A DNA stretch of 64,000 bases from Hexactinellida sp. DTS-2022. Its lineage: Eukaryota; Porifera; Hexactinellida. Of this stretch, positions 2,999 to 41,590 are shown piece after piece; within the stretch, counting starts at the first letter, position 1; each line of letters begins with the position of its first letter. Below the pieces are notes generated by a model. The model was not told the DNA's origin, searched no databases, and saw only the letters and a program-made list of their open reading frames with translations. Location of the stretch: assembly GCA_028753945.1 (NCBI GenBank), contig JAPNXP010000007.1:3720001-3784000 (forward strand). Reading direction: 5' to 3'. Both the position numbers and the translations under genes were made by a program.

Positions 2999-3000
2999 AA

Positions 3001-3153
3001 TGTGGTATTAACTTGAGCTTGGAATGTAGCTAGGTTTAATAGTGAAGAAATACAAATTAAGAATGCGTTAACTAAACTAATCTAAACTAACGTACTATGC
3101 TAGTACCTACACTTATCGTTATGGTCTACTACTAAGTATTAACTATCATGACA
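3001..3153 (-). repeat. 5' LTR of the retrotransposon
   Basis: 153 bp, TG...CA, no difference seen from 727-879. Followed by ATAT, the presumed target duplication. Confidence 0.92.
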
Positions 3154-19673: not shown

Positions 19674-20130
19674 CTAAGTGAATATGTGTTTCATACAAGT
19701 GCAATGAAAACACTTGGAAGTTGGAGCATTTTACAAGTTGATGATGAATTCTATTTTTCAAAATAGTAACGTAAATACTACACGTATTCCTAATTTCTAT
19801 TAGTAATAATTTAATTAATCTTTAATTAATTTAAAGATTTCAAGTGTTCACAATTCAAACATTAATTAATTAATTACACTAAGATGAAATGTAATTTGAA
19901 TATTGAAATTCTAGTTAAATTAAACATTGGGGAAGTGCAATCAGAAGGAGCACACTCCCATCCCGTCTGTGAGGGTTTTTAAAAAACTGTGTTGGTGCTG
20001 TAATAAACATCTATATTTATCAATTGCTTCTTTACACTTACACAAATAAATGAAGTTTGGCTAAACAAAAATAATGAAGAAATCGAAATTGAAACCTATT
20101 GGAGAAATTATAAAATTCTTAATGAAATGA

Positions 20131-20338
20131 CTAGCGACCCCTGTTTTTTTTAGGGGGATTGAATTATAACATATCAGAGAAACTGATCCTATTTATCTCG
20201 GAAAATTGAGCTCAAAGTTTGAACTGAGAAAACAGAGATTTATGCCATTTTTAATTAAACACTTATTCGTCTGTTATATAGGGAATATTCGAGAATATAA
20301 TGGAATTGAGGTAAACCTCCGTGTCTCTTCTAACGATT
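20131..20338 (-). repeat. Repeat R2, second copy, first part
   Basis: Reverse-orientation match to 14,960-15,205. It stops at the CGATT that precedes the RAG1-like element. The rest of this copy lies at 33,258-33,296 and 41,216-41,590. Confidence 0.75.
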
Positions 20339-21008
20339 CACAGTGGCTTAACACGTGGAAATAGGAAAATATTTGTGGTTATCAAAATGCTCCTAAATGG
20401 TATTAAATTAAATTTAGATAGTATACTAACGATCATATGAAATTTCAATTGATTTGAACACAAACTACGCCTATAAATATACTTATGAATTGTATCAAAT
20501 TATAGTTCTATTTGTCATTTTGAGAATTCTAAAAATACTACATATTTCATATCACTCTGAATTACAAGGTGTAATAAATCGTGGTTATTTTGTATTCAAA
20601 TATATACAAAACGAGTATGCTAAATATATATTTCTATACTGATTTACTGTTACACTGATGCATTTATATTTTAACAGGGGATAAAAGCTCTATTTACAAA
20701 AATGTACAACATTTTTTATATTAAAATCTCAGGTATGCGGAAAAAAAAGTACATCAAAGATCAACGAGAAATTTTGATAGGTTATAGATTAATGTTGTAA
20801 GATTAATTAAGGAAATCTTAGCTTCCGAAACAGTGCGCTACTTCTAAAATGTTATTGAATTCCATTGTCAATTTATGTTGCTAAGGAAATTCCAATTATT
20901 GTTATTTGTTGTTATGTAACAATATACGTTTCGGAATATGCAAGTGGCATGTTGTTTCTATCTACAAATTATAATATATACACGTGTATGTAAGAATATA
21001 AAGAATAA

Positions 21009-21163
21009 CAGGGGCGTGCTGGGGTTGGGGGGCCCATGCGGGATTCCATTCAGAAAGTAATCGCAGTGGGGGCCTGCGGTCCCACAAGGGGGGCCCTAAG
21101 ACGGCTCCCAAAGGGGGGCCCGAGCGGGAATCCCGCATCGATTGTATGGCCAGCACGCCCCTG
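21009..21163. mobile_element. hAT-type MITE, 155 bp
   Basis: CAGGGGCGTGCTGG ... CCAGCACGCCCCTG. Exact 8-bp TSD AAGAATAA at 21001-21008 and 21164-21171. Inserted inside the 5' half of the RAG1-like transposon. Confidence 0.94.
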
Positions 21164-21439
21164 AAGAATAAGGAAGATTTCAATAATTATAACAACGAAT
21201 TACGTATTTATATCCTCCTCTATGGCTGACAGCTCAATTACTATCCCCCAAACCAGGCTTGGTTTTGCAAGAATCCTGAAAGAAATTGACAACAATATTT
21301 CTCAAACGATTGGAAAATTGGAGGAATATTTTTAATTAGACCTTGCTAAGTGAGATAGTATACACATAATCCTATCTAGGGTTCGGGATACCATCAGAGA
21401 CTCTAAAAAATCTATTGACTCACTGGGTGGAGAATGGTG

Positions 21440-22023
21440 GAACTCTGCTGTCTTTCTATAGCCAGATTTGAAGAAGAGGCGTTTATCTTGCGATGCTGAA
21501 ATACAAAATTCTTCAGTGCATCATAGGAAGAGTATTGACAACCTTTCATTTAAACAACAGCGATCACGTCTATCAGATGTGTTAGACTCCATCAGAGTAC
21601 TCGCTGAACTTGAAAACATTTCAGAAATCAAGATTGCTGTTAGTTTCTAATGAGTATGATTCCAGACAAGTAGGTTAATTATAACTGACAATTTTTTGGG
21701 GATTTTGATAAAGTAGTCAAGAAAGATGTTGATGATGTTGATGTTGATAAGTCATTGTTCCTTCTTGATATGCTGGAAATAGGCAAGAGGAAATATAATA
21801 CGCTGCGTCAACATCTATCTAGTTATATTCAATTTCCTGCTTATCAGAAGCTTGTCGATAGGAGAAACAGTATCATTTACGTTCTTCAATAAAGCTATAT
21901 CCTAATGTTTCAGAACTAACTGGTGTATGTGTATCCTACGCCCAATATGTAGGCATACATTTACTAGTCTCGTCCATTAGTAGAGGATTTCCCGCTTGTT
22001 ATCAAATAGTAGATGGTTTAGAT
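21440..22023 (+). pseudogene. RAG1/Transib-like transposase, N-terminal half
   Basis: Fragmented + strand frames: LSFKQQRSRLSDVLDSIRVL (21,545-21,600), then LFLLDMLEIGKRKYNTLRQ (21,755-21,810) and PAYQKLVDRRNS, then YAQYVGIHLLVSS and FPACYQIVDG running into the hAT insertion. The last codons continue in frame with FDGSGSHAIYNH read on - from 39807. This junction carries the DG motif that corresponds to the first catalytic Asp of RAG1 (D600). Several stops and shifts; inactive. The N-terminal assignment rests mainly on this join and on the flanking termini. Confidence 0.6.
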
Positions 22024-24004
22024 CAGCGGTTCTTAACCTTTTTTATGTTATTTCCCCTTTTGACCAGTTCACTCTACTTGATTTCCCCCTTCATTTGGAT
22101 AAGGAAAAAAGTAGCAGTGAACATTCAGTTTATTAGCTGTTTGCAGCATTGTTAGCAAACAATAATGCAATAGTTAGTATGATAATGAACAAATTATCAA
22201 TAATAATTTCATTACTAGGAGGTTAGAATCAATGGGATGGCTGAAACTGGTTCTTTTCCACGAACTCATCCATATTAGGGGAAGTAATAGAGATCGCGCA
22301 ACGCATGTCGTATTCCACTTCTAACTTGTTTCGTGCTTTAGACTTGATTGTAAGCATAGATAAAAAACTAGACTCACACAGATACGTTGAGGAAAATAAA
22401 GTGGGAGTTTCAAAGCATTCACACTCAGGGTAGGCTCCTCGCATATTAATCCAGAAGTCCTCGAAGTCTTGAACACGAAACTCATCCTTTGTAGAGGAGT
22501 CGTGTGTGAGCTCCACGAACTCGTTTTGAAGTTCGTCAGGGACATCATCCTGCAGACACATGAATGGATTCCTCGCCAAACTCATTGCAATGCACGCAGT
22601 GTCGATGCAAGGGAAATAACGTTTGAACTCATCACCCAAATGTTCAAGGTGATCAATTATTTCTTCCTTCACCTGTCACTGATGTCGTCCTCACCATGCA
22701 GGTCGCTAAAAGATGCAAGATACCCATTTCTCATTCCTTTTCCCCAAAGTTGGAGTTTTGCCATGAAGGCAATGATGGCATGAGTATGAACGATTACGTT
22801 GCTTCCTCGCCCCTGCATTTTCTTGTTCAGTTCATTCAAGGCTTCAAAGATGTCGGCAAGATAAGCCAGCCTTGATTCGAAACCTTCATTGTTGAAGGCA
22901 GACAACATGTCCACCTTGTCTGCAGTAGCTAAGAATATAACTTTACTTCATCCCGCAGTTCGAAGACTCGAGCAAGCATGTTTCCTTTGGAAAGCCAACG
23001 AACCTGTGTATGGAATAAAAGAGCAGTGTGATCGGCGTCCATGTCCTCGCAGAGCGAGCGGAAGATACGAGTTTGAGGGCTGATCCTTTCACGTTTTTCA
23101 CGATATTTATGATAACAACCAAGTTCTCGTGAAGGTTTTTTGGAATTGTTTTCGAAACGAGAGCTTCTCTGTGGATCATGCAGTGCGTCCCTTCCACAGC
23201 AGGATTCTTATGCTTCACGAGAGCACCATCATTACATACCCCTGCAAGTTGCGGCAAAAAAGAAAGTCCTGCTCGATTCCTTGAGAGGTAATGTAGCGGC
23301 AGAAAACAAGTAGTTGTGCAATGTTGGCCACATCCGTTGATTCGTCCAGCTGAAGGGCAAAGAATGGAGACGACAATATTTTTGATACTACTTGTCCTTT
23401 GATGTTGTCAGACATTTCTTCGATTCTGTTCTTGATGGTGTCGTTTGACAGGGATATCTGCTTCATCTTTTTCGATTATTCCTATCCTAGTACAAGCGTC
23501 ACGCTCTTCAGAATGCACGGTTTCACGAGGATTTCACCAATTGTGTGTGCCTTCTTTGTTCTGGCAACCTGAAGAGCGATGAAATATGACGCATGCACGA
23601 TGTTCTTCTTGGTTTGCTGATAAGTCCTAGTTGCGCCCAACTTCAATCTTTTCAAGCCGGATAAATTGCACTCAAAGAAGCTACGGTCCCTATCTTTCAT
23701 TTGTGGATGAGTATTTATCATATGCTGTTTCAGTTGAAAAGGTTTCATGGTGCTGTTCGAGAAGGTTTTAAAGCACATGACGCATTGAGGGATTTGAACA
23801 CCGTCCTTGACAACATAACTGAACCCATAGTCCAAATAACTATCATGGTAGAACCTTCTCATTTGCGACATCTGACAGATGACTTGAACAATATATGTAT
23901 CTGAGTAGGATAATTCATTGATAACGACCATGAATTATGAATATTTAAAGAGTAATTCATTTTTTGATTTTTATCAATTTAGATACAATTATTTAAATTT
24001 TCCT
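22024..24004 (-). mobile_element. hAT transposon (ZBED5/SCAND3-like), main part
   Basis: Starts CAGCGGTTCTTAACC, preceded by GTTTAGAT (22016-22023). Its other end is 39808-39890, which ends (on -) GGTTAAGAACTACTG followed by GTTTCGAT: an 8-bp TSD with one mismatch. The split is at the left inversion breakpoint, about 24,004. Inserted in the RAG1-like transposase gene. The whole element would be about 2.07 kb. Confidence 0.75.
22229..23931 (-). pseudogene. hAT transposase, ZBED5/SCAND3 type
   Basis: Reads from about 23904 down to the stop at 22229. N-terminal BED-type zinc finger (PQCVMCFKTFSNSTMKPFQL with the downstream HMINTH), then KKAHTIGEILVKP, then FFALQLDESTDVANIAQLLV (catalytic block), VCNDGAL, NPAVEGTHCMIHREAL, and the C-terminal dimerisation part ending with ARNKLEVEYDMRCAISITSP. 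Disabling lesions: TAG and TAA two codons apart near 23,475; a deletion between LFCRNLQ and GVCNDG near 23,250; and further frame changes near 22,950 and 22,675. The family is the hAT lineage that gave rise to vertebrate ZBED5, SCAND3 and FAM200 genes. Confidence 0.85.
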
Positions 24005-26374
24005 TTAAGCGGTTAACTTTCATTGGACTTAACATTAAAGATTTTCCAAATATGAATTATAACATCTAGAAATTCATGAGTCTGAGTTACAATAGCAGCA
24101 CCCTGAATTTGTTTATTTAGCCTCAAGGTAGCGTTTGTCGATTCGCTAAACACGTCCAACGCAAGATTAACATTTTGCCTCTCTAAATTGGTAGGCCAGC
24201 AAACCTTTGCGGTCAATTTATATGCTTGCTTCAAGGTGGAAGAGTGCTCAAGTCTGTATTGATTCCTAATATCTTCAAAGGATGCTCTGGATACAGCAGC
24301 TGGTAAATTAAAGTTAATAGTATCTTCAAAAGAAGGAAAAATAAAACAATCATGTTGGTTAAGCCAATTGTTACGAATACATTTAATGATGTGGACAAAA
24401 TCAAAAATGAGGAATAAAGGACGATTGGGGTCACAAGGATGGGGAACTGATCGTTCAATTACATGCTTGTGCGAGAATAATTTGAATAAATTTTGATTTA
24501 GCGGTAAGTTGTCTGAACATAATACCACAACATTGAGGTTGCACTTTTCAATATCAGCTATGACAGTCGTCACTATCTCAAAGACTTCTTTAGCATCCGT
24601 AGAGGCAAGTGGATATAGACGAACTATTTCACTCCATTTATCGAAAAGGCTAGTCACCATGAAAGCAAGTACAGTTTTTGCCGCTACTTCTACATTCGAA
24701 CTGGATGAGCCATAAATCTTTCCTCCTTTATAGCTAAAGTTAGACTGTACATAAACCTCATCGATGTTTAATACGAGCTGACGCTGTTGTTTTGTAAACT
24801 TCTCCGTTGATTTAATTAGAAATTCTCTAAAATCATATTCCAAACCAGAATTTGAAGTAAGATTTCGTAATGTACTTTGATGTGGAAGTGTAAGACATTG
24901 AGAAGTTTGAAGAAAACTATAACAAGCAGGAGAAATAAATTGGGCCTTTAAAGCAAGTGTAAGAGTAATCACATTGTATCTGTATCTTTGCTTGGGAAGC
25001 GAGATATTTTCGAGTTGGCATAATATAAATTGGAGACGAGGGATTGCTAATAATGTATCAGGTTCATTATTAAGATAAAACTTATCAATTGAAGATTGAA
25101 GAATAACAATAGCTTGTTTGATTTCTTTTTGGGAAGAATTTTAATGGTAGCTCGAAATATCTTTGATATATGAATCAATTTCACGAATGTCTTTAACGTG
25201 TTGCGGAGATAAAGCCACCTGAACATCTTTATAAAATCCTAAAGGAACGAATTTTATAAATGTGTTATAAATTTCTAACTTACGAAGGGGTAAATTAGAG
25301 TGTCAACAAAAATGGATTTTGGGCTGCAACAAAAAGTACAGTGGTTTCGGCTAGTAAGGGATTCCGAACATATTAGGCCGAATATTTTCTATATAAATTA
25401 TTTGTAGATATATATTTTAATGTAGTAAGTATTTCCGGGTACATAGAAACCAATTTATAATCTATGTATAGCATATAAACTAACCCTTTGCGCAGAGACT
25501 TGAATCTATAAGGATATATGATTCAACGTTAAGAAGTGATCCACAAAGCCGAGGTTTAAATATACTCAAAGTTGTATCAGAGGGATACCATAAGAACAAA
25601 TTCTCTGGTAGTGTATAGTTTGAAATTTTAAGTTTAAATTCTTCAAAAGTCGATACAGCGAATCTTTCAAGTTCAAGTTCATAATCAAGCTTGCTATCTG
25701 TAATCCACTTGATAAAAGAAATATATTTAAATAAAATATTGAGTTCTTATGTATGTGTATATTAAAAATATGCAGTGTATATAATTCAGTTCTACAAGGA
25801 CTGTAGGAAGATGCGTTTAGGATACAGCTCAGAAATCTGCTCTAATATGCATGAACAACAATATTTATACGAAATTTCATGCAGTTCATGCAAATCGCAA
25901 AACTGGTAATTTGCAATTTGTATTATTAACGCAACCTACGACTTCTCATGACTGTGACGTCATGGGTAAAATCAATACCTTTTACGATGTCAATTCAATT
26001 AGTATATCAGTTCCTTTACCTTACTGTATAGTATATGAAAAATAACTAACATCATTGATTTCATTCTTAAACTTGCCTATATTCAATGAAAACATATATA
26101 GCGTTGCTATGTAATATAAGCCATATATATATCTAGTAGAAAATCATGATAACATGAAACACTTTGTTTTTACTTCATAACTCGTCAAATCAATATGATT
26201 CAACTTGCGTGGACGAGAAAATCACCAATATTATCTAAATTTATATTATTATTAGGAATTCAAAAATTTAGGTCAATTTTTCGATGGAATTTCCCTATTT
26301 TTGAGAAATGTAGCCATACAACTTTGCGAAATTAGAAAAAAGTATGGAAACGCTCTGAACGTTATTTAGATATA

Positions 26375-26854
26375 CACTACCCGGACAAAAGTATTCGACC
26401 ACCCAACATTTTCCCATTGAAAATAGTACTATACTAGGTTGAACAATGAAAGATTGTGTTTTCAAATTACATGACATATTGATATTTCGATAACAAATTC
26501 GTATTCTGCGCATTCGAATTAACAATTGTAGAAGCTTTCAATTAAATCCCTTTTCTATTCGGTTAAAAATTATCATCCTGTGACAATATATACCACTTTT
26601 CCCAAATTGCCACTATGGGAGAGATGGGAACAGGTGGCACATGTTGCCATTTGATGATAATTTCAGCTAAATTAATATGTTATCAATTTGAAAGAATCTA
26701 AAATGGGTAATTAGCATGCGTAGAATACGAATCTGAAATCAAAATAGCAGTATGTCATAATGTTTTAATACATTGAACAATATTATTAGACCTACTATAG
26801 TACTATTTTCAATGGGAAAATGTTCGGTGGTCGGATACTTTTGTCCGGGTACTG
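26375..26854. mobile_element. Tc1-type MITE, 480 bp
   Basis: Long inverted termini (CACTACCCGGACAAAAGTAT / TTTTGTCCGGGTACTG) flanked by TA (26373-26374, 26855-26856). In the intron of the BD transposase. Confidence 0.9.
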
Positions 26855-27099
26855 TATATATAAACTACATCTCCCCGAAATTTCAAGTTGATACGATAAA
26901 TAATCACGGAGTTCTCTAGCTTTTTCCACAGCCGGTATTAGAAAATATTTATGTGGAGAAGAGGGTTTAGAAGGACACAATAGTGGCACAAACCTTCAAT
27001 ACTTCTGACAGATAATGGTTTGAAGATAATTGAAGCAGTTCATATTCCTCGAAAACGATTACTGATAGTGTTAGCAAGTTAGAGCTAAGCACTTGCACT

Positions 27100-27480
27100 A
27101 CTCTGAAATTCATGATCGATGGTTTGTGATGGTCACATGACACCTCCATATATGGGCATGGGCTTCTTAACATGGTGACTATTTGGATAATACTCCAATT
27201 TGTTATTCCAATGATATATGCATGATATATTGATGTGAATAATCGATTAGAGCTAAGCTCTGCTTTCTCTAGTTTATGAGATTCAAAATTGCTGAATCAT
27301 CAAAATGTGGCACATATCCATGCCCATATATGGTCATTTGAAAAAACGGGGCGTCTGAGGGTCACAAAATGTATTAGGGACTCATAGGAAGTCGTGTATT
27401 GCGAGCCTTTTTCACTAGTACATTTTAATTCTTGGTGCACGGGAGTCTGAAAAATGTATTCAGAGGGGGTGTGTTAGAAA
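27100..27480 (+). repeat. Repeat R3, uninterrupted copy
   Basis: Reverse-orientation counterpart of 490-726 plus 3158-3280. It shows the unfilled version of the site where the LTR element sits (ATATATTGATGTG near 27,225-27,237). Confidence 0.65.
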
Positions 27481-28452
27481 TTGGACCCCAAGGATAGATA
27501 ATGTGCCCTGACTTTGCGAATTTTCTCTTTCTATATGGTTTTTTTTTCAATTTTGGTGTTTTTACCACAGACTAACAAATGAGCCAGGTTTATTCAAGGA
27601 AAATCACCAAAAATAATGTCAGTTACAGCAAACAATCCATCTGAAAGTGCTGAATCACTGAAAAAGTACACTCAGCAACCCAAATATCGTACTTATAGAG
27701 GTCAAATTAGTAGAGATATTGTACGTTTGACCTTTGCATATCCTTGGGGGCTTAATCAAGCGTCTATAGAAGAAATATTTATTTTTGTGATTTTGTAGCC
27801 ATTGGCAAAATAGTACCCTTAGGTAGCGTTAATTAACTGCATGAAATTTTGGTATTTGATTGATTAAGATTTTAGTTACTCAATATAAATATTAAATACC
27901 TGATGAAAGAACCATTGCTCTTTCTTATCAAGATCCAATCGCTGAGTGATGGCGTCATTTAACCTTGAATAAGTAGGGAATTCAAATATACGGGGAATAG
28001 AAACAGGTAGGTAGGCTGGCCGTCTGGAAACAGTTTTCACTGAACCATCAGGTTGCGGTATATCGACGGTCAAAAGTAAATCTTCTTCTCTGAAATGTTT
28101 AATGCAGACATAAATTGTTCGTAATTCAGAAACATCCTCACGACATATCTGCCTCAACCACAATTTAGCTAGATCGGCATCTTTTGGCAATGCGAAGAGT
28201 GTAGGCATTCTCCGATCCAGGATAAATACTTTTACAATTTGGCATCGTGAATTAAGCTAAGTATAAGTAGTATATCCAACTGAGTAAAATGAAATTAGTG
28301 TTAGGTCAAGAATAATTTAAAAATCATGAGCCGTGAACTACGTAATATAAGGACCGGAATCAACAATAAAAAAATGGACCATGGATGAAACAGAAGTGCA
28401 TTGGATATTTTTGTATAATACATTCAGTTAGGAACTTTACAGGTGAAATATA

Positions 28453-28926
28453 CCCTCCCCTACCAAAAGTATTCGTACACCCAAAATTTCCTATGGAAAT
28501 ACTACTATATAACTCTAATATTTATCGCTAATTTATACAAATTCTATGAGATGTCGCCACTTAGTATTCAGAATCGTATTCTACGCCACCGAATTGACCA
28601 TTGTTGAAGCTTTCAACTCAATTACATATTTATAAGTTTGAAAATTATCATCCGGTGTCACCATGTACCACTTCTTCCATTTGTCCCCATGGTACAAGAT
28701 GGGAATAAGTGGTACATGGTGGCATAGGATGATAATTTTCAACCTAATCAGTAGCTAATAGAGTTCAAAGCTTCTTTAATTATTTCGAATGCGTAGATTA
28801 CGAATATGAAATCTAAATTGCAATATTCCATGTATTTAGTGTACAATAAACATTATTATTGACACACTATATTACTATTTTCTATGGGTATGCTTGTGGA
28901 GTATGAATACTTTTGGTAGGGGAGTG
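28453..28926. mobile_element. Tc1-type MITE, 474 bp
   Basis: CCCTCCCCTACCAAAAGTAT ... ATACTTTTGGTAGGGGAGTG, flanked by TA. Nearly the same sequence and the same 474-bp length as 55918-56391. Inserted just inside the left terminus of element A. Confidence 0.92.
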
Positions 28927-29556
28927 TACTATATTTAGCTGAATTTAACTAAACGAGAAATATGCATCATGATCATATCATAGAGGTCCATTCATTGTAA
29001 ATATAACGTATTAATACGTATGTGAGAAAAACCGTACAGAATGCAGAATATGTGAAAACACTACATAAACATTAATGTTTAAATTTCTTTATTTTCCAGA
29101 TATCTTTCTTTGCAGATGTTATTTCAGAGTTTATATTGCGAACCTTTAAGGCTAATATACAATTAGTGCATGTAGTTAGTATCTTCCTTATGATATTCCA
29201 TCCAGAATTACTACAACCATCACAGTTATTCCTCCAATGCTCGCTATACCCATCAACCAATACGTATTCAGCTAAATGAATTAACACTTTTCTTGAAGGT
29301 GAGGAGTAGAATTGTTTCTTCAAAGATTCGTTTTCATCAAGTTTGGTAAATATTTTCCACAATACAATAATTGACTCAATTACAATATCTGAAGGCCATT
29401 TCAGAGAACCACGATCGATATATCTTACAAGGTCATATTTTGTAGTTTCTGAAATTTCAATATCTTTGTTCTCAGTTAGTTTTTGAACACAATGATGGCA
29501 GTTTGTGGTTTTAAGATAGGAATATACAGCGTAACCACCAATAAACACAATAGATT

Positions 29557-30067
29557 ATAAGGGGGAAATCAATTTAGACAAAATTAATAATAATAATAAA
29601 ACCAAAATAAAATAATACCTCCTAACATTGATCCACTGGTGGCCAAGAAGCAGTTATCGCCAGACAGCTAATAATTTGTAATTTCAAGGCTACTTTATTC
29701 CTCAGAGGCGGATCCAGGGGGGGGGCCAGGGGGCCTGGGCCCCCCCTTCGAAACTGAAATTGATTGAAATTTAGGCTGAAATTGTCAAAATAATTAAGAA
29801 ACTTCAGCCTCAAGTTTGAATTATGGCTCCTTATAAAGAAATTAGCGTTTAAAATTACTTCTGAGTGTATATAACTCAAAAAAATCAGGGGGGTTACCCC
29901 CCAGAACCCCTTAAAAATTGCTCGCTACGCTCGCATTATTTCTTGGGCCCCCCCTTTTCAACATGTCTGGATCTGCCACTGTTCCTTATACTACAAATGA
30001 AGGGGGAAATCGAATAGAGTGAAATGGCCAAAAGGGGAAATGACATTAAAAAGGTTAAGAACCACTG
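29557..30067. mobile_element. hAT terminal fragment in P-like A
   Basis: The right ~200 bp (excluding the inner MITE) match the reverse complement of 22024-22228, ending GGTTAAGAACCACTG at 30067. The left end is not a normal terminus. Imperfect flank similarity (AATAGAT / TCTAGAT) suggests a degraded TSD. Confidence 0.6.
29703..29981. mobile_element. hAT-like MITE, 279 bp
   Basis: CAGAGGCGGATCCAG ... CTGGATCTGCCACTG. Direct TTCCT on both sides (29698-29702, 29982-29986). Poly-G and poly-C near the ends. Confidence 0.78.
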
Positions 30068-33001
30068 GTCTAGATCATGAATAACATCAATATATTGATC
30101 ATAGGATATGTGATTGGGTTCATCTGCTGTTGGGGAAAATGTGTTGATAAATTGCTTAAGGGTAAGTTCACTTTTGCATTGTTGTAATGAAAATAACTTA
30201 GAATATTCGACAGGTTTAAGCGCCGTTCACTCTCTAAAATTTGAGAATATGTGATGTGATATTGAGCACCACTCATCATCCGATATAGTCCAAATTGATG
30301 CTCAATAGGATCATTCTGGAGTCGAGAGCTAAGAACATACTCAAATCCACAATTCTGAATGAGATGTGCAATTATTAATGGGAAAGTAATACAAGAATGG
30401 CGAACACTAATGAAATTTTGTGCACTAAGTTTCCCACCCTTTCCAATAGTAGAACTCCACCGCTTAAGCCAATTCGAAACTAAATCAAGAAAAACAAAAC
30501 GCCAATCTTTGTCAGTAAGAGGTCTAGAATACTCGTCATTCAAGCGCACATGCTTAAAAGGTGTATTTATGTTGAAGATCTTCCAAATTTTACTTAATAC
30601 ATCAACAAAGTATGAAGTGTCATTTATAGAATCCGGATGTAAATCATTTTGAATTTTAAGAGCTGCACAAGTTGACTCGTTGAATACACGAAGTGCTAAA
30701 TTAACGTTCTGACGTTCTAAACTAGTGGGCCAACATACCTTAGAACTTAGCCGGTGAGCTTGCTTCATAGTAGAATGTTGTTCACTCTTGTACAATTTTC
30801 GTATATCATTAAACTTTGCCTCATTCAGTTTAGTAGTAGAATTAGGGATTGAAGGAAAGAGTTGCATATCTGGATATGAAAACGTAAGATCATAATCCTT
30901 CAAGTTTAACCAATTGTTTCTTATCAATTTGATAATGTGAACAAAATCAAACAAGATAGAAAGCTTTCTCTCTGGACAAGTTGGATGTTGAACAGCAGGA
31001 AGTAATGTCTTTTGATCAGAAGAAAACAATTTAAATAAACGTACATTCAGGGGATAATTATCTGTAACGAGAACTTCAACAAATAAATCACACTTTTCTA
31101 TATCGTTGATTACAGAACTGACCATTGGGTATAATTCCTCAGCAGTAGAAAAGTTTGATGGGAGCAACCGTACAACTTGTGACCATTTTTTGGATAGACT
31201 AGAAATCATTATGGCAAAAACTTTTTTAGTTGGAGAAGTTGGATCAGTATCACCAATAACCTTTCCACCTAAACAATTAACAAATTTAAATTTGCTTAAA
31301 AGTGCACAAGTATGTACTGCAAGTGAAACAACAGTATTTACCTTGATAAGAAATTGCTGGTGAAACGTGGATTTCGTCCATATTGAGAATAACATGTCGG
31401 TCCCTCTCACAAAAATCAGCAGTTAACTTTTTAAGCAGATGTAAATATTCGGTATCCAATCCTATACATGAGGATAGAACTCGAATTTACTTTGTTGTTG
31501 GAAGAATAAGACAATCCAACGATTGAAAAAAACGATAGCAAGCGGGTGATATCAAATGTGCTTTTAAGGCAATGGCCTAGAAGGAAATAAGAGGTAAACA
31601 ATAAAGCACTACACGAGGTTAGAAAATTATAATCTCACCTGGGTAACTACGTTATATCTCCGTCTTTTTTCTGAAACTAGCGAGGTTTTCAAGTTGGCAT
31701 ATAACGAACTGGAGGAAGGGTAATAAAGGTGTCCTGTGTTGCAGCTCACAGAGCTCAGTTCTGTATCTTCTAAAATTGGTATAGACGACTGTAATTTAAT
31801 GGCTGCTTCTTTGATATTTACCAGAACAAGGATTGAATCAAATATCTCAGGGTTTGGCTCGAAATTTGAAATATCATCAATAATGGATTCGATCTGTCGT
31901 AGGTCTGATATTCGCTTAAGATACAAGGGCACTTGGTGTTGGCAACTAACGGCTGAAACCATTAAATCTGAATTGATTGTTAACGTAGATTGGATGTTAA
32001 CGGATTGGTCAAGGAGTTTCAGCTGTAAGATTTGCAAGGTGTTACTAAAGGAGTACCACACTATCCAATCTGGGCTTAGACGTAAATCAGGCAACTTAGT
32101 TCTAAGTTCCTCAAAAGAATCCAGAGCGAATCGTAATTTATCTTGTTGGTCTTGAACAATGCTATCATGAAGACCTTGAGCAAAATATTTTTCTTCCTTA
32201 GATTCTCGACTAAAACGCTTTGATGTCTGAGCAGTTGAAGTAAATGAGATGGAAAACCATGGGAAATAACTGGTACAGCGTTAGGACTGTATGTTGGTCT
32301 AATGCGTGGTGTTTCAGTGTAGGTACCATCAGCTTGGAGAACCCTGTCAACTCTTATAATGTCTTCCTCTCTAAAGTGGTTTATACAAATAAATGTGTTG
32401 TTCTCTGATAGGTCACCAGCTATATCTCTATGGAGAGCTCGAATCCATTGATTCTTCAATTCAGGTGGGCCTTTCGGCAATCTGAAAACAGTAGCACTGG
32501 GGTGACCTCTGTAATTCGTCTTGCAGCCAAATACAGAACACATGTTAGGCATTACGTATAGGGTTTAGACTTTAGACTAACAAATATCAGTGAAAGATAT
32601 AAAAAGTATTAAAAAAGTCTAAATAAACTAAATAAGGACGAAGATTCGAGTACTAGCTGAACAACATATTAATCGGTAATGGCTATTAAATGATAATTGT
32701 TTAGAAAATCTCCCGAGAAATCTCAAATTCATACTGTAACGATGATTTGAAAATTAATAAAATATATAGTAAAATATAATTTTTAAGTTTATGGGTCATT
32801 AATAATATCTTACATAATTACATTTAAAATGCATTCCTAACCAATTCTAAAAGTTAAATTCAGCTAAATATAGTATACTTAACCTGTAAAGTTCCTAACT
32901 GAATGTGTTATACAAAAATATCCAATGCACTTCTGTTTCATCCATGGTCCATTTTTTAATTGTTGATTCCAGTCCTAATATGACGTAGTTCACGCATGAG
33001 C

Positions 33002-33222
33002 ATAAATAGTACGAAAGCGATATACAACTATCGAATAATCAAATCTTGAACTAAATAAATTTAATTGCAGTATTTATACATCAAAGTATATTTATTTATT
33101 GTGGTTATTTAAAATTGAGTTTCTTTCATTACATGTTGTGGTTGCATAAATACTACCATCTACTTGTAATCCAGTCATAGCTAATTATAGCCAGTTGTAA
33201 GTCCTGTATTACGAAGTTCCCG
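33002..33222 (-). mobile_element. P-superfamily element BD, outer 5' terminus
   Basis: Continuation of BD beyond the A insertion. Its last 27 bases (33196-33222, ending GAAGTTCCCG) are identical to 41182-41208. The flanking AGTAGGG (33223-33229) is the reverse complement of the CCCTACT found after 41208. This is what a 7-bp TSD looks like when one side has been inverted. Confidence 0.78.
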
Positions 33223-34173
33223 AGTAGGGTTAGTTTTCAAAGTTCCCGAGTAGGGTTAGTTTTCAAACTGAATCTAATTTATTTTGGTATCATTCGCACC
33301 GAATATTCCCATTTTGCCTACTAATCGGAAATCAGTGTCATTTCGCCTACTCATTCTTCAAATGAGATTTGTTGTTTTTTAGCAAGTATTTTAAGGTATC
33401 TCAATTTTGTTATTGATAGGTGTAGTACAACAACAAATAACATACTGCCCAAATATATAAACAGTAAGTTTGAGAGTGATAATTATCTATTTATGGAGTA
33501 TATTTCTACCAATCGAGGAGCTCGTGCTCTTGTTTATGAAGGCTACAAATATCAAATTAATAGACGAGGGTTAGATGGTCGGATTTTCTGGAGATGCTCC
33601 AAATCCCGAACTTGTAGCGGAACACTTACAACGCTCAATGGGGAAATCATTTCTAACAGAGCTAATCAACACAGCCACCCAGCTGATGATTCAGAAATAT
33701 CCGCCTGTAAAACACTCGAGACGATAAAAACTACTGTTAGGGAAAGTATTGACCCTGTACCAAGTATCTATCAAAGGAATATGATTGAAATATCAGCTCG
33801 TCATGATCGTGATGCAATAGCAGCTCATTTTCCTAGCTTTCCTACAATAAAATCTGCATTGTACAGGATACGAAGGCAACGACTTCCCCCTCTCCCACAA
33901 TCCAGGAGTGAAGTTCATTTCCATGGTGAATGGGCTAGAACATACAATGGGTCGCAATTCTTAATTGCAGAAGGCGGTGACGAGGATAAAATTGTCATTT
34001 ACAACAACAGACAATATAAGGTATTTATCCGAGGTTGAAAGAATTTACATGGATGGTACATTTCAAACATGTCCCAGCATATTCTATCAAATTTTCACTA
34101 TACACGCATTGAAAAGTGGTAAGCAGTTCCCTTTGGTGTATCGTCTTATCCCAGGAAAGTCACGAAGTATATA

Positions 34174-34357
34174 CAGGTAAACCTCCCAAAGCGGCACCTC
34201 CGAGTAGCGGCAACCTCCGAGAAGCGGCACAAAATCATTCTCCCGATGGGTGGCGCCTTGGGAGTTTTACCTTACGAGCAACCTCCCAAAGCGGCAACCT
34301 CCGAGAAGCGGCACAGAGTCATTCTCCCGATGGGTGCCGCTTTGGGAGGTTTACCTG
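34174..34357. mobile_element. Tc1/pogo-type MITE, 184 bp
   Basis: CAGGTAAACCTCCCAAAGCG ... CGCTTTGGGAGGTTTACCTG, flanked by TA. The interior is an imperfect duplication of one ~85-bp unit. It interrupts the MULE gene. Confidence 0.92.
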
Positions 34358-34741
34358 TACTTAAAAGACCTGGAGCTTCTTATCTTAAAGGCTAGACAAC
34401 TTGGCTTTAACATAAATCCAAATGAAATTTTAACTGACTTCGAGATTGCTATTATTCAGGCAATTCAGTTAGTATTCCCATCTACAACTGTAAAAGGTTG
34501 TTACTTTCACTTCACCCAGGCATGGCCTACTTAATATACGGCCGTGTATGTCACCGATAAGGCCAAAAAAATAGAAGGCCAGTTTATAAATTTCATTCTA
34601 GGATAAACTATGCCTCCTATTGATATTATTTGGGTTGTATATGGGGTAATCAACCATTGCGAGTCCATTAGAACCACTTTTGAGAATCTGAGATTTGTGG
34701 TTAAGCTGTTTAGGCGCCATTTAATGATGACACAACAAATC

Positions 34742-35440
34742 TATATTATTAAATCTCGATTGTTGTGTGGTGTGTTTGTCCGGATTATATTAAAGTGATG
34801 GGGGAATAGAAACCGCAATTAATATTGGGATATAAACTAACTTTCAAATGTTATAATAGGTAAACAAATGTTATAATAGGTAAATTAGTAGGCTGAACAC
34901 GAATTTCGCGTTTATAAATTTCTCATATTAATATTTGTTGTTGTTGTTTACACAAAATAGGTAAACAAATTAATGAAAATTCAAAATCAACCTAGAAGTT
35001 AGCTTCTAACGGATATTATAGGTAAACAAGTATGCTGATTTCGAATTTCGCGTTTAAAAATTTATAATACGAATGAATATTTGTTGTTGTTATTGACACA
35101 AAATAGGTAAACAAATTAATGAAATTCAAAATCAACCTAGGAGTTAGATTTCAACGGGTATTTAGGTAAACAAGTATGCTGATTTCGAATTTCGCATTTA
35201 TAAATATATAATATGAATATTTGTTGTTGTTGTTGACACAAAATAGGTAAACAAATTATTGAAATTCAAAATCAACCTAGAAGTTAGCTTTCAACGGGTA
35301 TTATAAGTATATAATTATGACAAATATTTACTATGTAATCATTTGTTTGTGAGGAGTAAGGCCGCGTAGCGGCCGTTAACATGAGGTGCATAGAAACGAT
35401 CTGTCGCAAAGCGACCGAGACCGAAGGGCTCGTATACTAT
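34742..35440 (+). repeat. Repeat R1 copy inside N1
   Basis: Matches 7443-8080. Contains about four imperfect tandem units of ~110-140 bp (GGTAAACAAATTAATGAAA..., AGGTAAACAAGTATGCTGAT). Ends with TCGCAAAGCGACC and GACCGAAGGGCTCG. The adjoining 35,443-35,545 matches the interior of N2, so R1 sequences interrupt N1. Confidence 0.6.
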
Positions 35441-35971
35441 ATATACAATTCTAGTCTAAAAGAACTACGAGAAAATGAAGATATTTTGCTAATATGCTGA
35501 GTATACATATCCGAATATATAATGAAAATTAATATATACGAGCCCTTCGGTCTCGGTCGCTTCGCGACCTTTGTTCGTTCGTGTTAGGCACTACGAGATG
35601 CAATTAACGGCCGCTTCGCGGCCTTTCCCTCCTCTAAAAGACAGTAATATTAATAATAAATAAGTTAACCTGTGGCTAGTATATTACACACACTACTTAA
35701 CGCGCGCTTAAATTCATTCTGGGTTGTGATTCGTTAATGTAATCTGTTTGGGAAATGATGTGATAATTATGTATGTTATTCTCATTACTTATTAGTTATT
35801 AATTATTAGTTAATAATATATGATATTGGCTCAATAATTATCAATTAAGGTAGCTCATTTCAGCTCCATTAAATGGTTAGCTTGTTAGCTCAAATAAATT
35901 GAAACCCGTGGCTGATAAATTATACGAAATTATTTATTTCAGTATATTATATTGCATATTAATTTACTTAG

Positions 35972-36076
35972 CCTGGATTTAATCTCTGCATAATAATGGT
36001 TTAAAGATGAGAATAAGACCGCTTCGCGGTCTTATTCTCACCATTAAACCATTATTATGCAGAGGTTAAATCCAGG
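35972..36076. repeat. 105-bp near-perfect palindrome
   Basis: Two ~50-bp arms around a loop of about 5 nt (GACCGCTTCGCGGTC at the centre), with only a few mismatches seen. Lies in the core of N1. Confidence 0.92.
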
Positions 36077-38407
36077 GTTGTAAAATATTTGATTTAATTG
36101 ATAGTAATAATAAACATATCAATCTCATAATTAGACAGATCCTAAATCCTTGATGAATCAACTACTTAATTAATTTCATAATTTCAGTATAGGTTATAAA
36201 TTACGTAATTCCATTAATTGTCTTATTAATAGGGAGCCAATATAGGTGTAATAAATAAACAATGCATCAGAGAAGTTAACTACTCGAGTGCATTCTTGTT
36301 AACCAAACAAATCAGATCACCCACATAGTGCTAAAAATAATATGATACATTTGAACTAATAACTTTCGTTAATCACTCTTACTTGAATTGTTTGCAATAG
36401 AACACAATCTAAAATCGATTTTGCACTTTGCTATACCTGTGTTGGTACGATACACTATTTATGGTTGATTAGTGCAGGGACTAATTAATTAACTGTGTCA
36501 CAATCAGAAGAAAAATGGGAATTCGTGAACTGCTATCAGGTGTAGAAATTTAGTGTACTTCTAATGCTTTGAATTTTCTACAGATCGGAGCAAAATTGGG
36601 AAGCTAGTACAAAATATCTGTTTTTCGCAACTGTGACGTCATAATCCCGTTATTTTGTTTCAAAAACCAATAGATCGTTGTCGCAGTACAAAATTACCCC
36701 TGTATACAAATTTTCAGCTTTCTGGGACTCGTAGTCTTTCCAACTAATTACGGACAAACATCCAAACACACACACAACAATTCCTCTTTTAATATATAGA
36801 TAAACCAGCACTTATATACGTTTTATGGACGAAAATAGTAAGTTGTAACTCGGATAATACTTGTATTTTAGCATGTGGTTGCTTAATAATTTTTCGAATT
36901 TTTAGAATGTCGCCATTTTGTGATTTAGTAGCCTTGGAGTGCTAAATATATCCCCATTTAGTATTCCTGTTATAAAATTATTAGAAGGTAGGAAGAAATG
37001 AAATTTATGATATTAAAAAAAAAATCATTTTACCATAAATTGTTACCGTCACCATTAAATGGCGCCTAAACGGCTTAACCACAAATCTGAAATTCTCAAA
37101 AGTTGTTCCATTGGACTCGCAATGGTTGATTACCACATATATAATAACAATAAGAGGCATAGTTTAGCTTAGAATGAAATTTATAAACTGGCCTTCTATT
37201 TTTTTGGCCTTCTCGGTGACATACACGGCCGTATATTAAGTAGGCCATGACCCAGGCAATAAATAGAAAGATAATACGATGGGCCTTCAAACGCTCTACA
37301 AACAAGATGCTGTAATGAATCAATTCATTCGAAAAACAGCAGCATTAGCATTCATTCCTCCAGATCTAGTCTTCTTTGGCTGGAATATGGTTAAAACCAT
37401 GGCACCTATTCGTCCAGAGATACATGAATTCATGAATTATTTTGAAGATACTTGGTTGGTAGGCCAGTTTCCACCCGTTTTGTGGAATGTATTAACCAAG
37501 ACGCACACAACCCAAGGACAAATAATCATGTAGAGGGATGGCATAATAAACTTAAAAGAATAGCTCGAAAGGCTCACCCTAATATTTACGAAATCGTAAC
37601 GATTTTCAAACAAGAGCAAGCGTTTACGGAAGTCAGTATTGCACAATTGGCATCCGGTGCTACACTGACAAAGAGAGCAAACAAGAGTGTTCAAAAAGAT
37701 AATAGAATTCAAAAACTTAAAGAAGATTTCGTGGCAAACCTGATCACTATGGGTGAATATCTACAGGGACTTTCATTACTAACTATATTTTAAACTCCGA
37801 TTTTTCTCAAATATTTACATTTACTTTAATTACACTTATAATACTACATATAATTATTCTTATAATATACAATATACGTACTATAATAGTTGAATCCTAA
37901 TTAAACAAGCAGATTATATTCAGTATTAATTAATGAAACCTGGTTAATTACACGTACATATTTTAATTACACGTACATATTGCGATATAACAAATCTCAT
38001 TTGAAGAATGAGTAGGCGAAATGGCACTATTTTCAAATTAGTAGGCAAAATGGGAGTAGGCGAAACAGGAGTAGGAAAAATGGGAATAATTCATTCGCAC
38101 AGTGGCTTAATTTGGCATTTGGTAAGGGACAGGTATGTGGGTTAATTTTACCGTATATAATGTATTATTTGGCTATAGGTTATCGAACATTAGGAATCGA
38201 TTGAGATAATTAGACCTCTTAAGTCTTGCGGTTTTGGAATTATGACGTAATCATAATTTTCCCAAATTTAGAAAGCAAGAAAAAATTTCTCAATTTTTAT
38301 TATTTTTAGCATAAAATTTATTTAACAATAAGAGAATGTACTAGACTATCTATAGATACTCTATTGTGTTGTTTGAGTCGTATTTGCTACAACACTTGGC
38401 AGACCTT

Positions 38408-39807
38408 CTAGTGTGACCCCTTCGCCGCATCTCTCACCCTCAATTTTGAGCGAAATTCTAATAAAACTGGATCACTTTCACAAGCTAGCCTACAAAGATG
38501 TCAATAATGTTATCTTCGAAGGATGTCTTTCTTGCTAGATGTTCTCTGTATTCTGTAATTAATTTATTACAAGGCTCTGAACCTTCTTCAGAGAAACATT
38601 TAAAACCATACCCACAATTAACTTCCCTTAACAATTCTTCGGAGTGTGACAATAATTTGTGCAATGTGGGAGTGATGTTTGCCCATGGAATGATTCAAGG
38701 ATTAAGAGATAGGTACCTTTACAAAGTTTTCCAAGTTCATTGGTATTGATCTTTCTACCACTGTTGAAGATTCTCATAATTGCAGATAATTGTGTATTAA
38801 GTTTTGAGAGTGCTTCTTTGTGCTGTTGCTCAACTAATTAAGATAGACACTCAATCAACTGGGACTCGCTAGAAAAAGCTTTTCGTGCAACGCTACCAGT
38901 TGACGTCGTTCCACCTGAAGGATCCGGTAGGTCTATTTTTAATCCGATCCTTTCAAGTACCACGTTGCGCACAAAGTGCATCGATTGGTGGATAGCTGGG
39001 GATGTAGCCGCCCATTTTAATATACCACTGTTCAAATGGTATACTAGTAAATTAAACCACATGAAAATACACGTATAAAAGTGTATAGGAGAAGACGGTG
39101 TGATATTGATGGTTGAAACAGGTTCGGGAGTTAAATTGAATCGATCATTGGATGGAAGAGAGAAAAATGATTCGATATCTTCCAGTTCTCCAAAAATTTC
39201 TATCGCATCAGAAATATGCCTGTTAATGGGGAATCCTTGCAGTATTAATTGTGGATCCTTAAGCTCTTTGTGAGTTGCTGTGCATAGTTGACAGCTTGCT
39301 CCCCCTGCCCCTGAAAGTATTGCAGCAATTTCCCCATCGAACATTGATCTAGTAAAGTCTACAGCTACATGACCCATTCCAGGTATCTCAAATCCTTCAT
39401 TCTTCAATTTGTCAGTGTCAGGGTTTATTATGTCAGTCATAAATTGTCTGATATTTGACTCATTTTCTTTAGCAGCGCACAAAAGATTGACCGTTGACAA
39501 AATGGAGAGTTAGGGGTGTTTTGCCACTAGAAGACATTATGGAAATGGATTTGAAGCAAAAATACCAATGATTTGGTTGAAGTACAGTGGATGCCGGTTA
39601 TAAGGACATCGTCGGGAACTGCACTTAAGGTGCTTATAACCGGCATGTTCTTACAACTGACATAAATTATACAGGTATATGGCAACCGTTTTCCAACATA
39701 GTGTGCTTATATCCGATATGTTCTTATAACCGGTGTGCTTATATCCGACATCTACTGTATTTGTATTTTGTGGTTGTAGATAGCATGACTTCCTGATCCA
39801 TCGAAAC
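38408..39807 (-). pseudogene. RAG1/Transib-like transposase, catalytic and C-terminal half
   Basis: Read on - from 39807: FDGSGSHAIYNHK (first-Asp block of the RAG1 family), interrupted by a MITE (39585-39757). The long frame 39500-38838 follows: VDFTRSMFDGEIAAILSGAG, CQLCTATHKEL (a CXXC zinc pair as in RAG1 CTLC), QGFPINRHISDAIEIFGE, SIPHFYTC-like centre, LVYHLNSG, and GLKIDLPDPSGGTTSTGSVA (the GTTN/GN..RR block of Transib). After a frame change come LHKLLSHSEELL, FSEEGSEPCNKLITEYREHL (third acidic residue, near 38,585) and ARKTSFEDNIIDIF. Stop at 38408-38410. Block order follows RAG1 core from D600 to E962. Several frameshifts make it inactive. No RAG2-like gene is seen. Confidence 0.78.
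39585..39757. mobile_element. Tc1/pogo-type MITE, 173 bp
   Basis: CAGTGGATGCCGGTTATAAG ... TCCGACATCTACTG, flanked by TA. Family of 5295-5450 and 6029-6356. Interrupts the RAG1-like gene. Confidence 0.9.
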
Positions 39808-39890
39808 CAGTAGTTCTTAACCTGGGGGAATTTATTTTTTTGGGAAAAGTAAATAACAATAATCAAACTTAAGAGATTCCTTTTCAAACC
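39808..39890 (-). mobile_element. hAT transposon, opposite end
   Basis: Begins (on +) CAGTAGTTCTTAACC, preceded by ATCGAAAC. On - this is ...GGTTAAGAACTACTG then GTTTCGAT, the partner of the GTTTAGAT before 22024. It meets the P-like half at about 39,886-39,893, the right inversion breakpoint. Confidence 0.7.
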
Positions 39891-41044
39891 CACTGATTAA
39901 TAATGATGAACGTTTTTCATTTCTTAGTAATGTTGTTCAATGGCTAGATACTTGGAAATTGCTACCTGGAAGGTTGGAAAGTTAACACCCCAAACTTTCT
40001 CTAGTTTCAGACATTCTTGTTTAGTACTTCCTCAAATAGTTAACTATCTTACAAGTGACACATGTGGTTTCGCTTATATTCTATCATCCCGTCAACAGAA
40101 CGATCCCCTTGAACACCGTTTTGGCGTTTATCGACAAATGTCAGGTGCTCAGTATAGTATATCTGTCCTCCAAATTCTTGAAAGTGAGCGCAGATTAAAG
40201 CTTTCTTCAATATTAAAGTTATTTCAGAAGGATACTTCTGGAGAAATGTCACTTAAAGACTTTATTAAGAAATTTACCTCGGAGGAAGAACCGGTTGAAA
40301 TAACTCCATTAGAAGATTTCTTGTCGCTGTTGGACAATTCTATTCCCCTTCCTGAAGTAGATGAAACTACTCTCCTAGCATTGGCATTTGTAACTAGATA
40401 CGCTGTCCATTCTACATTCTCTAAATACAAAGATAAGTGTGGGGAATGCTTTGCTAGTTTAACCAAACAGAGAGATATTCATTTTGAAAATCAAGATAGT
40501 GTGAATCTACTCATTCAAATAACAGATCGAGGATTAAAGCAGAGGCGTATACTCGGGATGGGGATTGCCCGGATTGGTAGGGCCATTTATGCTAACTTGC
40601 ATCATACTTAATAGAAGATGATGGCTCTTGACAAATTATTGGTAGGGCCATGGCCTCACCAACCCTACCGGAGCCTACGCCTATGTAAAGTATCCATCAA
40701 TGGAGGTTCTAGAATCGTGCATTCTCCTTTGGAAAATCTATACTGCAATTGAAGAGCAACCAATATTATTCAGCAAATTTATTTCATCAACCCCGCGAAA
40801 AATTCTTGTATCTCTCTCTACTATCAAAATAGAAGATACATCATCTTTGACAGAATTTTGGAGAAGTAATTGCGACTACTGTCTCAAGGTTAAATGGGAT
40901 CTATTGAAGAAAATACTTTGTACCATCTCTAATTGCATTCTGTCAAATAAAGTTCGCAACTTTAATTCACTCAAAGTACTCAAATCTTCAAAACGAACTT
41001 CTAATATTGAGGACAACAGGAAATTGAAGAAATTTCAATCTTAA
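39886..41044 (+). pseudogene. P-type THAP transposase BD, C-terminal third
   Basis: Begins PLINNDERFSFLSNVVQWLD, which follows the point where the - strand half (24013) stops. One frame shift near 39,945, then the long frame 39940-40611: FSSFRHSCLVLPQIVNYL, QQNDPLEHRFGVYRQMSGAQ (Glu of the DDE set) and ILESERRLKL. A 143-bp MITE (40541-40683) interrupts at DRGLK; translation resumes YPSMEVLESCILLWKIY and runs to the stop at 41,042-41,044. Element A keeps the same order (YIDRGSLKWPSDIVIESIIV), confirming the join across the MITE. Confidence 0.87.
40541..40683. mobile_element. MITE, 143 bp, AGRGGCGTATAC ends
   Basis: Same family and same length as 62808-62950 (reverse orientation). Ends AGAGGCGTATACTCGGG / GGAGCCTACGCCTA. 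Flanks share only TAAAG plus imperfect neighbours, so the TSD is degraded. Confidence 0.85.
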
Positions 41045-41215
41045 TTAATATAATTGTTTCAGTATGTGATTGAATACATATGTTATCTGTTTTAAGTGTC
41101 GGAGTTAATGATGAATACTCTTCTGTTTCAAAATTATCGTTATACAATGCCATCTACTTACCATCCATGGTCCAAAGTACTTGTAAGTCCTGTATTACGA
41201 AGTTCCCGCCCTACT

Positions 41216-41590
41216 CAATGGACTTTTCTAAATTATACTTCCACTCTTTTCCCCAACTTCAAGTTTGAGTGTTTACAAATCCAAATTTTTGGAATTTTAA
41301 ATAAAAATTAAATCACATAAACCTCCATCTCTCCAAAGTATGATTACAAATTTTCAAAATTGTAAACCAATTTTGAGATAGCGATTTTTGATGAAATTCC
41401 AACCCTACATTGTGTGATAAAAATAACTAACTGAAAGTTCATTTTTTTTTAAATAAATCATATTACAGTAAACCTCCGTATCTCGTATCTGGAATGATAT
41501 TAAATTTATTCAAATCTAACAACTAAAGTTAGTCAAATAACTGACTGAAGTGACCCTGGTCGAATACTAAGCCAACTTCACACTCATAAA
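41216..41590 (-). repeat. Repeat R2, second copy, last part
   Basis: Matches 14,520-14,890 in reverse (CCCCAACTTCAAGTTTGA, CTCCGTATCTCG, CGAATACTAAGCCAACTTCA). Confidence 0.72.

What the first reader, a model, noticed from the sequence alone, without database searches (positions are those of the whole stretch)
20131..41590. One ~15.9-kb inversion explains three split transposons
A RAG1-like element (20339-22023 on +; 38098-39807 on -), a hAT (22024-24004; 39808-39890) and a P-like element (24005-28331 plus 33002-33222; 39886-41208) are each in two halves of opposite orientation. Flipping about 24,004-39,890 makes each continuous. The hAT then has TSD GTTTAGAT/GTTTCGAT. The P-like element gets inverted 27-bp ends and an exact CCCTACT TSD. 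The RAG1-like element gets CACAGTGG...CCACTGTG ends with CGATT/CGAAT. The R2 copy around them becomes colinear with the intact copy at 14,520-15,205. Breakpoints lie inside the hAT and the P-like element.
Basis: seen in the sequence. Interest (0 to 1): 0.92.

Follow-up and report, generated by a model that had tools for sequence, protein, structure and literature searches.

The report
Small inversion through nested sponge transposons
In what appears to be a glass sponge genome, a 15.9-kilobase piece of DNA has flipped around inside a nest of jumping genes, cutting two of them in half; it is an unusually well-resolved example of an ordinary kind of rearrangement.

Summary
Flipping one segment makes a Transib (RAG1-like) element, a hAT, a P-like element and the surrounding repeat continuous. 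Other copies in the same genome support it: among 88 fetched loci, 18 P-like places cross the restored P joint, one hAT place crosses the restored hAT joint, and eight Transib places join the two opposite halves without the hAT. Only the window's own loci carry the present junctions. Both breaks lie at CTTAAG, present in hAT relative L039 and 13 of 18 P copies; nothing is lost and at most one base gained. "R2" is one of two ~0.7-kb inverted ends of a single host element; the "intact copy" at 14.5 kb is the other end. The genome is probably a glass sponge. Most likely mechanism: two breaks rejoined end to end at a 5-6-bp shared sequence. An assembly error cannot be excluded without reads. Ordinary mechanism, exceptionally clear case.

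The parts
   Evidence: 26 of 41 listed genome matches fall into 13 convergent pairs, 10 of them 6.0-7.6 kb apart start to start
15231..20102 (+). interior of the host element, open frames without a Pfam match above cut-off (e.g. 16291-16911)
20103..20336 (-). right terminal repeat of the host element, inner part
   Evidence: 76% to 14966-15230 in the opposite orientation, 80-85% to L085
20339..22023 (+). Transib-like element, first half; starts CACAGTGGCTTAA; preceded by target copy CGATT
22024..24006 (+). hAT element, larger part; target copy GTTTAGAT at 22016-22023
   Evidence: 93-100% to L039 over its aligned pieces
24003..24009 (.). left inversion junction, CTTTAAG (CTTAAG plus one T)
   Evidence: L039 reads CCTTAAG
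24007..39870 (-). inverted segment, 15,864 bp
24007..28331 (-). P-like element A, part inside the inversion (with a ~500-bp palindromic repeat in it)
   Evidence: 18 places run across the restored joint; other copies reach at most 25646 (L051)
28332..32994 (-). P-like element B nested in A (THAP and TNP-like domains); 7-bp target copies CATGAGC at 28325-28331 and 32995-33001
33002..33222 (-). P-like element A, outer end with 28-bp terminal repeat; next to AGTAGGG (reverse complement of CCCTACT)
33223..33299 (-). piece of the host element's right terminal repeat, with part of a 26-bp tandem duplication and one target copy TCATTCGCAC (33290-33299)
   Evidence: 33263-33296 matches the host repeat (94%), L085 and L063
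33300..38090 (.). FLYWCH-encoding element with terminal inverted repeats; 10-bp target copies TCATTCGCAC at 33290 and 38091
38098..39807 (-). Transib-like element, second half, ending at 38098; target copy ATTCG (reverse complement CGAAT) at 38093-38097; 39800-39807 is the hAT target copy
39808..39870 (-). hAT element, other end
39868..39873 (.). right inversion junction, CTTAAG
39871..41208 (+). P-like element A, part outside the inversion (holds a ~152-bp insert at 40534-40685); followed by CCCTACT (41209-41215)
41209..41588 (-). right terminal repeat of the host element, outer part
   Evidence: 80% to 14523-14903 in the opposite orientation; 79% to L085

Best explanation
A host DNA element with ~0.7-kb inverted ends received, in its right end, a Transib, then a FLYWCH element beside it, a P-like element A (later hit by P-like B) and, inside the Transib, a hAT. 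Two breaks then occurred, one in the hAT and one in P-like A, both at a CTTAAG or TTAAG sequence. The 15,864 bp between them were rejoined in the opposite orientation by end joining at that 5-6-bp shared sequence. The arrangement (a single inversion) is shown by comparison with other copies; the repair route is inferred.
For: The P joint restored by the flip is present in 18 other places, the hAT joint in 1, the Transib halves joined in 8; among 88 loci the present junctions occur only in the window's own. Restored 28-bp P ends with exact 7-bp target copies, Transib ends with 5-bp copies (1 mismatch), hAT 8-bp copies (1 mismatch). The host repeat becomes colinear, including its middle piece 33263-33296. 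L039 reads CCTTAAG at the hAT site; at the P site 13 of the 18 aligned copies read CTTAAG (L044-L053, L055, L061, L063) and 5 differ by one base (L054, L056-L058, L060). A shared run of 6 or more between random points of the two elements: 0.2%; of 5 or more: 0.65% of 200,000 draws.
Against: No reads or second individual could be examined. Only one hAT place spans its joint, and it differs nearby (a 13-bp difference and one T). In the window's own hAT, once flipped, the site reads CTTTAAG, so CTTAAG itself is absent, and two more distant hAT ends read differently there (L087, L088); whether the shared sequence was 5 or 6 bp is open. hAT x P contains 4,407 six-base inverted matches, so a shared 6-mer is not itself proof of its use.
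Confidence: 0.82

Rival explanations
1. Assembly error: the sequence was flipped by the assembler and the chromosome is in the ancestral order.
For: Reads not available; the region is rich in repeats.
Against: No N in the window, so no scaffold gap at the breaks; the breaks lie in two different elements and the 2-kb stretches around the junctions share only one 12-bp match, so no inverted repeat there would flip the path.
Confidence: 0.08
2. Ectopic recombination between two copies of one element in opposite orientation.
For: It is a known route for transposon-linked inversions (Galileo in Drosophila, PMC2775673, abstract).
Against: The breaks are in two unrelated elements without inverted homology beyond 5-6 bp at the break and one 12-bp match nearby, and no chimeric copy of one element sits at both junctions.
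Confidence: 0.02
3. Cut and re-ligation at TTAA by a TTAA-specific transposase (piggyBac type): elements once sitting at the two TTAA sites excised together, leaving four matching TTAA ends that were joined in the inverted order.
For: Both breaks centre on TTAA with no bases lost; the genome has piggyBac-type domains (57 matches). That piggyBac inserts at TTAA and excises cleanly is recalled; a passage in PMC11931979 names TTAA as its insertion site.
Against: None of the 18 P places spanning the site nor the one hAT place carries an insert there; no TTAA-flanked pair of inverted ends was found in the 12 piggyBac loci fetched, though ends beyond those 4-kb loci would be missed; TTAA is common here (638 in 64 kb).
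Confidence: 0.07
4. The halves are separate truncated insertions that happen to lie opposite each other.
For: None found.
Against: Matched ends, matched target copies and 18 + 8 + 1 places with the halves joined.
Confidence: 0.01

Closest known systems
Galileo-mediated inversions of Drosophila buzzatii (PMC2775673, abstract and outline seen)
   Same: An inversion whose two breakpoints lie in transposons; exchanged target site copies reveal it.
   Different: There, two copies of one element recombined and remain chimeric at both breaks; here, two unrelated elements were broken and no homology beyond a few bp was found.
Inversions by two breaks and end joining, some with staggered-break duplications, in Drosophila (listing with abstract starts; those papers not opened)
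   Same: Two non-homologous breakpoints rejoined.
   Different: No inverted duplication beyond the shared 5-6 bp, nothing lost.
Transib / RAG1 superfamily elements
   Same: CACAGTG-type ends, 5-bp target copies, transposase of a sister copy closest to the Transib structure 6pqn (that 6pqn is HzTransib is recalled).
   Different: Here only a passenger, broken up by a hAT and by the flip; no RAG2-like gene was searched for.

Membership tests
simple two-break inversion | one reverse complement restores all interrupted features | tested here: met
simple two-break inversion | uninverted order present in other copies | tested here: met
   18 P, 8 Transib, 1 hAT places
simple two-break inversion | uninverted order present in another individual or species at this locus | not testable with these tools
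   one unnamed assembly held
ectopic recombination inversion | inverted homologous repeats at both breaks | tested here: not met
   one 12-bp match between the 2-kb stretches around the junctions
microhomology end joining | short shared sequence at both junctions | tested here: met
   CTTAAG/TTAAG, 5-6 bp; chance 0.2-0.65%
piggyBac-type excision event | TTAA at both breaks | tested here: met
piggyBac-type excision event | element at the same TTAA in some copy | tested here: not met
   18 P places and 1 hAT place without insert
piggyBac-type excision event | piggyBac elements of this genome flanked by TTAA | tested here: inconclusive
   0 of 12 loci with recognisable TTAA ends, but loci are only about 4 kb
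Transib | transposase closest to Transib among solved RAG1-type proteins | tested here: met
   L012 frame: 6pqn 4e-23, RAG1L 6b40 4e-11, vertebrate RAG1 3e-5; the Pfam RAG1 model matched below its cut-off (21.1 of 25 bits)
Transib | 5-bp target duplication and CAC-starting ends (recalled) | tested here: met
   (one mismatch in this copy)
hAT | 8-bp target duplication and CAG-type short inverted ends (recalled) | tested here: met
   GTTTAGAT/GTTTCGAT, one mismatch
hAT | hAT transposase domain | not tested
   no frame of this copy was scanned for it
P superfamily | TNP-like transposase domains and THAP | tested here: met
   PF21787 in 24013-24972; THAP seen only in the nested element B
P superfamily | 8-bp target duplication (recalled for Drosophila P) | tested here: not met
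   7 bp for both A (CCCTACT) and B (CATGAGC)

The most novel reading that the evidence does not exclude
A transposase that cuts cleanly at TTAA (piggyBac type) made the inversion by excising two elements at once, leaving matching TTAA ends that were ligated in the opposite order: a footprint-free inversion with no element left behind.
Probability: 0.07. Interest if true: 0.6.

Novelty: new member of a known kind. Interest (0 to 1): 0.3.

Why it matters
The Aphrocallistes vastus genome paper (PMC10282587, section 2.2 read) calls 'what directs inversion breakpoints' a key unresolved issue and finds inversions relatively uncommon between two glass sponges. This is one event resolved to the base, readable only because the broken elements have many relatives. 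It shows that small inversions inside transposon nests can exist where gene-order comparison cannot see them, and the same reading (halves of opposite orientation, target copies exchanged) could be automated to count them.

Tried and rejected
Long inverted repeats at the junctions as the cause: one 12-bp match only. TTAA-ended piggyBac elements in the 12 fetched loci: none recognised with the rule used (16-bp ends with at least 13 matches, 1.5-4.2 kb apart). Pfam for four host-element frames: three without any match at E up to 1, one weak match far below cut-off; one frame (16291-16911) has 13 relatives, all unnamed and from ENA. Rfam: nothing in the window reached a gathering score. The upstream part of P copy L044 (L086, 3.2 kb) matches the window over only 72 bp, so that copy is interrupted or differs beyond 25,532 and could not serve as a full-length reference. 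Two further hAT-end copies (L087, L088) diverge upstream of the joint and do not help to decide the extra T. Literature for TTAA-type inversions: 4 papers held the terms; one was opened at passages and uses piggyBac only to place cassettes. Literature for Transib, RAG1-like and sponge together: one unrelated paper, by listing.

Full report
What was claimed. One ~15.9-kb inversion between about 24,004 and 39,890 explains why three transposons and a repeat are each split into halves of opposite orientation.

Where it lies. The window is contig C16:3,720,001-3,784,000 of a 112.4-Mb assembly in 18 contigs. A frame with an IF-2B domain at 50,592-51,101 is 79% identical over 99% of its length to Oopsacas minuta eIF2B-delta, the best of 32 hits by E-value; an unnamed ENA protein is 94% identical over 84%. 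The genome is therefore most likely a glass sponge; the species was not identified. The window has no N.

Observation. The P-like ends at 33,195-33,222 and 41,181-41,208 are the same 28 letters in the same orientation today; after the flip they are inverted and flanked by CCCTACT on both sides. The Transib ends CACAGTGGCTTAA at 20,339 and 38,098 are likewise in the same orientation today and become inverted, with CGATT and CGAAT beside them. The hAT ends get GTTTAGAT and GTTTCGAT.

Test against other copies. I fetched 30 loci for the P half at 39,891-40,290 (of 42 listed matches, 40 of 90 candidates having been scored), 29 for the Transib half (all 29 listed matches) and 5 for the hAT half (all 5 listed matches), besides others; 88 loci in all. 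The 12 P matches not fetched were weak (E 1e-11 or worse). Probes across each joint (a hit counts if one alignment covers probe positions 60 to 105) gave: restored P joint, 18 loci, all at different places; restored hAT joint, 2 loci at one place (L039 and L042 overlap); Transib halves joined without the hAT, 10 loci at 8 places (L002 and L010 overlap, as do L014 and L031). Present left junction: only L038, which is the window. Present right junction: only L043, which is the window. One-sided matches were 6, 6, 5, 21 and 28 loci respectively. The present Transib-hAT border was spanned only by L001 and L009, both the window, with 14 loci one-sided. This speaks against separate truncated insertions.

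What this does not cover. No fetched P copy reaches beyond 25,646 (L051), so the outer part of the P-like element (25,647-28,331 and 33,002-33,222) is tied to the rest only by its matching 28-bp end and exact target copy. That P-like A continues across the nested P-like B rests on B's own ends and 7-bp target copies.

Two Transib copies do not show a clean empty site: L011 and L016 carry hAT-end letters at the same point. In L016 both hAT ends are present about 1 kb apart, so a shorter hAT may sit at the same site in another Transib copy. I did not follow this up.

Exact breaks. The P copies typically read CCGCTTAAGAGATT; of 18 aligned across the site, 13 have the full CTTAAG and 5 a one-base variant. 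The hAT copy L039 reads TTCCTTAAGTTTG. The window reads TTCCTTTAAGCGG on the left and CAAACTTAAGAGATT on the right. Both breaks therefore sit at CTTAAG or TTAAG, cut points inside it being equivalent; I set the flip to 24,007-39,870, 15,864 bp. No base is lost; one T is extra on the left, which may be older than the inversion. Two more distant hAT ends (L087, L088) read differently at the site, so they do not confirm CTTAAG in the hAT. Between random points of the two elements, a shared run of 6 or more occurs in 0.2% and of 5 or more in 0.65% of 200,000 draws, so the shared sequence is probably not an accident; but the two elements hold 4,407 six-base inverted matches, so such sites are plentiful, and CTTAAG itself is absent from the window's hAT because of the extra T.

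The surroundings. Of 41 listed genome matches to 14,523-15,230 (40 of 171 candidates scored), 26 fall into 13 convergent pairs, 10 of them 6.0-7.6 kb apart start to start and three 10-16 kb apart; 15, the window's own among them, have no listed partner. It is best read as the terminal inverted repeat of an element whose frames have no Pfam match above cut-off. In the window, 14,523-15,230 is the left end and the broken copy at 20,103-41,588 the right end of the same element, as their orientation shows. After the flip the right end reads 20,103-20,336, then 33,296-33,263, then 41,210-41,586 in order. L063, another copy, shows 20,183-20,336, 33,296-33,265 and 41,418-41,549 in that same order, with the middle piece opposite to its present orientation.

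Order of events. The FLYWCH element at 33,300-38,090 has the 10-bp target copies TCATTCGCAC at 33,290 and 38,091. These letters include the last three of the Transib end, so it came after the Transib. P-like B (28,332-32,994; CATGAGC copies) came after P-like A. The hAT came after the Transib. The inversion came after the hAT and P-like A. Its order relative to P-like B and the FLYWCH element, which lie wholly inside it, is not determined. P-like A is 96.6-98.5% identical to L044 and L045, so it is fairly young, but no rate is known.

What was broken. Of 18 P loci checked (L044-L061), 9 carry an open frame of 150 codons or more through the break, the longest 734 codons in L047. The window's copy, even flipped, has none there; it has a 2-bp deletion next to the break. 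So I cannot say that the inversion killed a working gene.

The RAG1-like element. The open frame of a sister copy (L012, 621 aa) matches the transposase 6pqn at 4e-23 (HzTransib, recalled), RAG1L 6b40 at 4e-11 and vertebrate RAG1 at 3e-5; the Pfam RAG1 model matches below its cut-off. It has 93 relatives at E up to 0.001 among the 7,993 candidates scored, several named from Oopsacas minuta. It is a Transib-type passenger. RAG-type inversion at its own ends is excluded, since the breaks are not there.

Mechanism. Shown: one inversion relative to the other copies that span the joints; breaks in two unrelated elements; a shared 5-6-bp sequence; no loss. Inferred: two double-strand breaks and end joining at the shared sequence. 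Disfavoured: recombination between inverted repeats, because only one 12-bp match is shared by the 2-kb stretches around the junctions. Open but unsupported: a TTAA-cutting transposase. Not excluded: assembly error.

Literature. The Aphrocallistes vastus paper (PMC10282587, section 2.2 read) says inversions are relatively uncommon between two glass sponges and asks what directs breakpoints; its main text does not hold the whole words Transib, hAT or piggyBac. The Oopsacas minuta paper (passages) gives DNA transposons as 15.44% of the genome and does not contain 'Transib'. The paper with the tulip hexactinellid (PMC10232365, passages) calls that genome considerably rearranged.

Noticed in passing
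14523-15230 and 20103-41588: The two ends of one unclassified element, about 6.3 kb with the nest left out (by arithmetic), with ~0.7-kb terminal inverted repeats; 13 convergent pairs among 41 listed genome matches; one frame with 13 unnamed ENA relatives.
   Followed up: partly
33300-38090: FLYWCH-encoding element with inverted ends and an exact 10-bp target duplication that includes 3 bp of the Transib end.
   Followed up: partly
28332-32994: Second P-like element (THAP, TNP-like domains) nested in the first, with a 7-bp target duplication CATGAGC; both P-like elements here make 7-bp copies.
   Followed up: partly
33214-33265: 26-bp tandem duplication that spans the P target copy and the outermost letters of the P end, perhaps a trace of repair at a P end.
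   Followed up: no
40534-40685 and 62805-62951: ~150-bp insert in the P-like element, 98.6% identical to a second copy in the window.
   Followed up: no
26365-26864, 28448-28932, 55914-56395: ~500-bp near-palindromic repeats; the last two are 96% identical.
   Followed up: no
L016 1-3404 (also L011): Another Transib copy has hAT ends at the same insertion point, about 1 kb apart in L016: either the hAT moved with the Transib or it prefers this site.
   Followed up: no
724-3153: A 156-bp direct repeat, 99% identical, on both sides of a frame with aspartyl protease domains: looks like a short retroelement; only described.
   Followed up: no
G000 contig C11: piggyBac-type domains occur in close mirror-image pairs, e.g. 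C11:10780310(-)/10785053(+) and 4928457(-)/4938567(+).
   Followed up: no
29982-30072: A 91-bp stretch inside P-like B is 88% like the hAT left end 22019-22106: probably another hAT end nested there.
   Followed up: no
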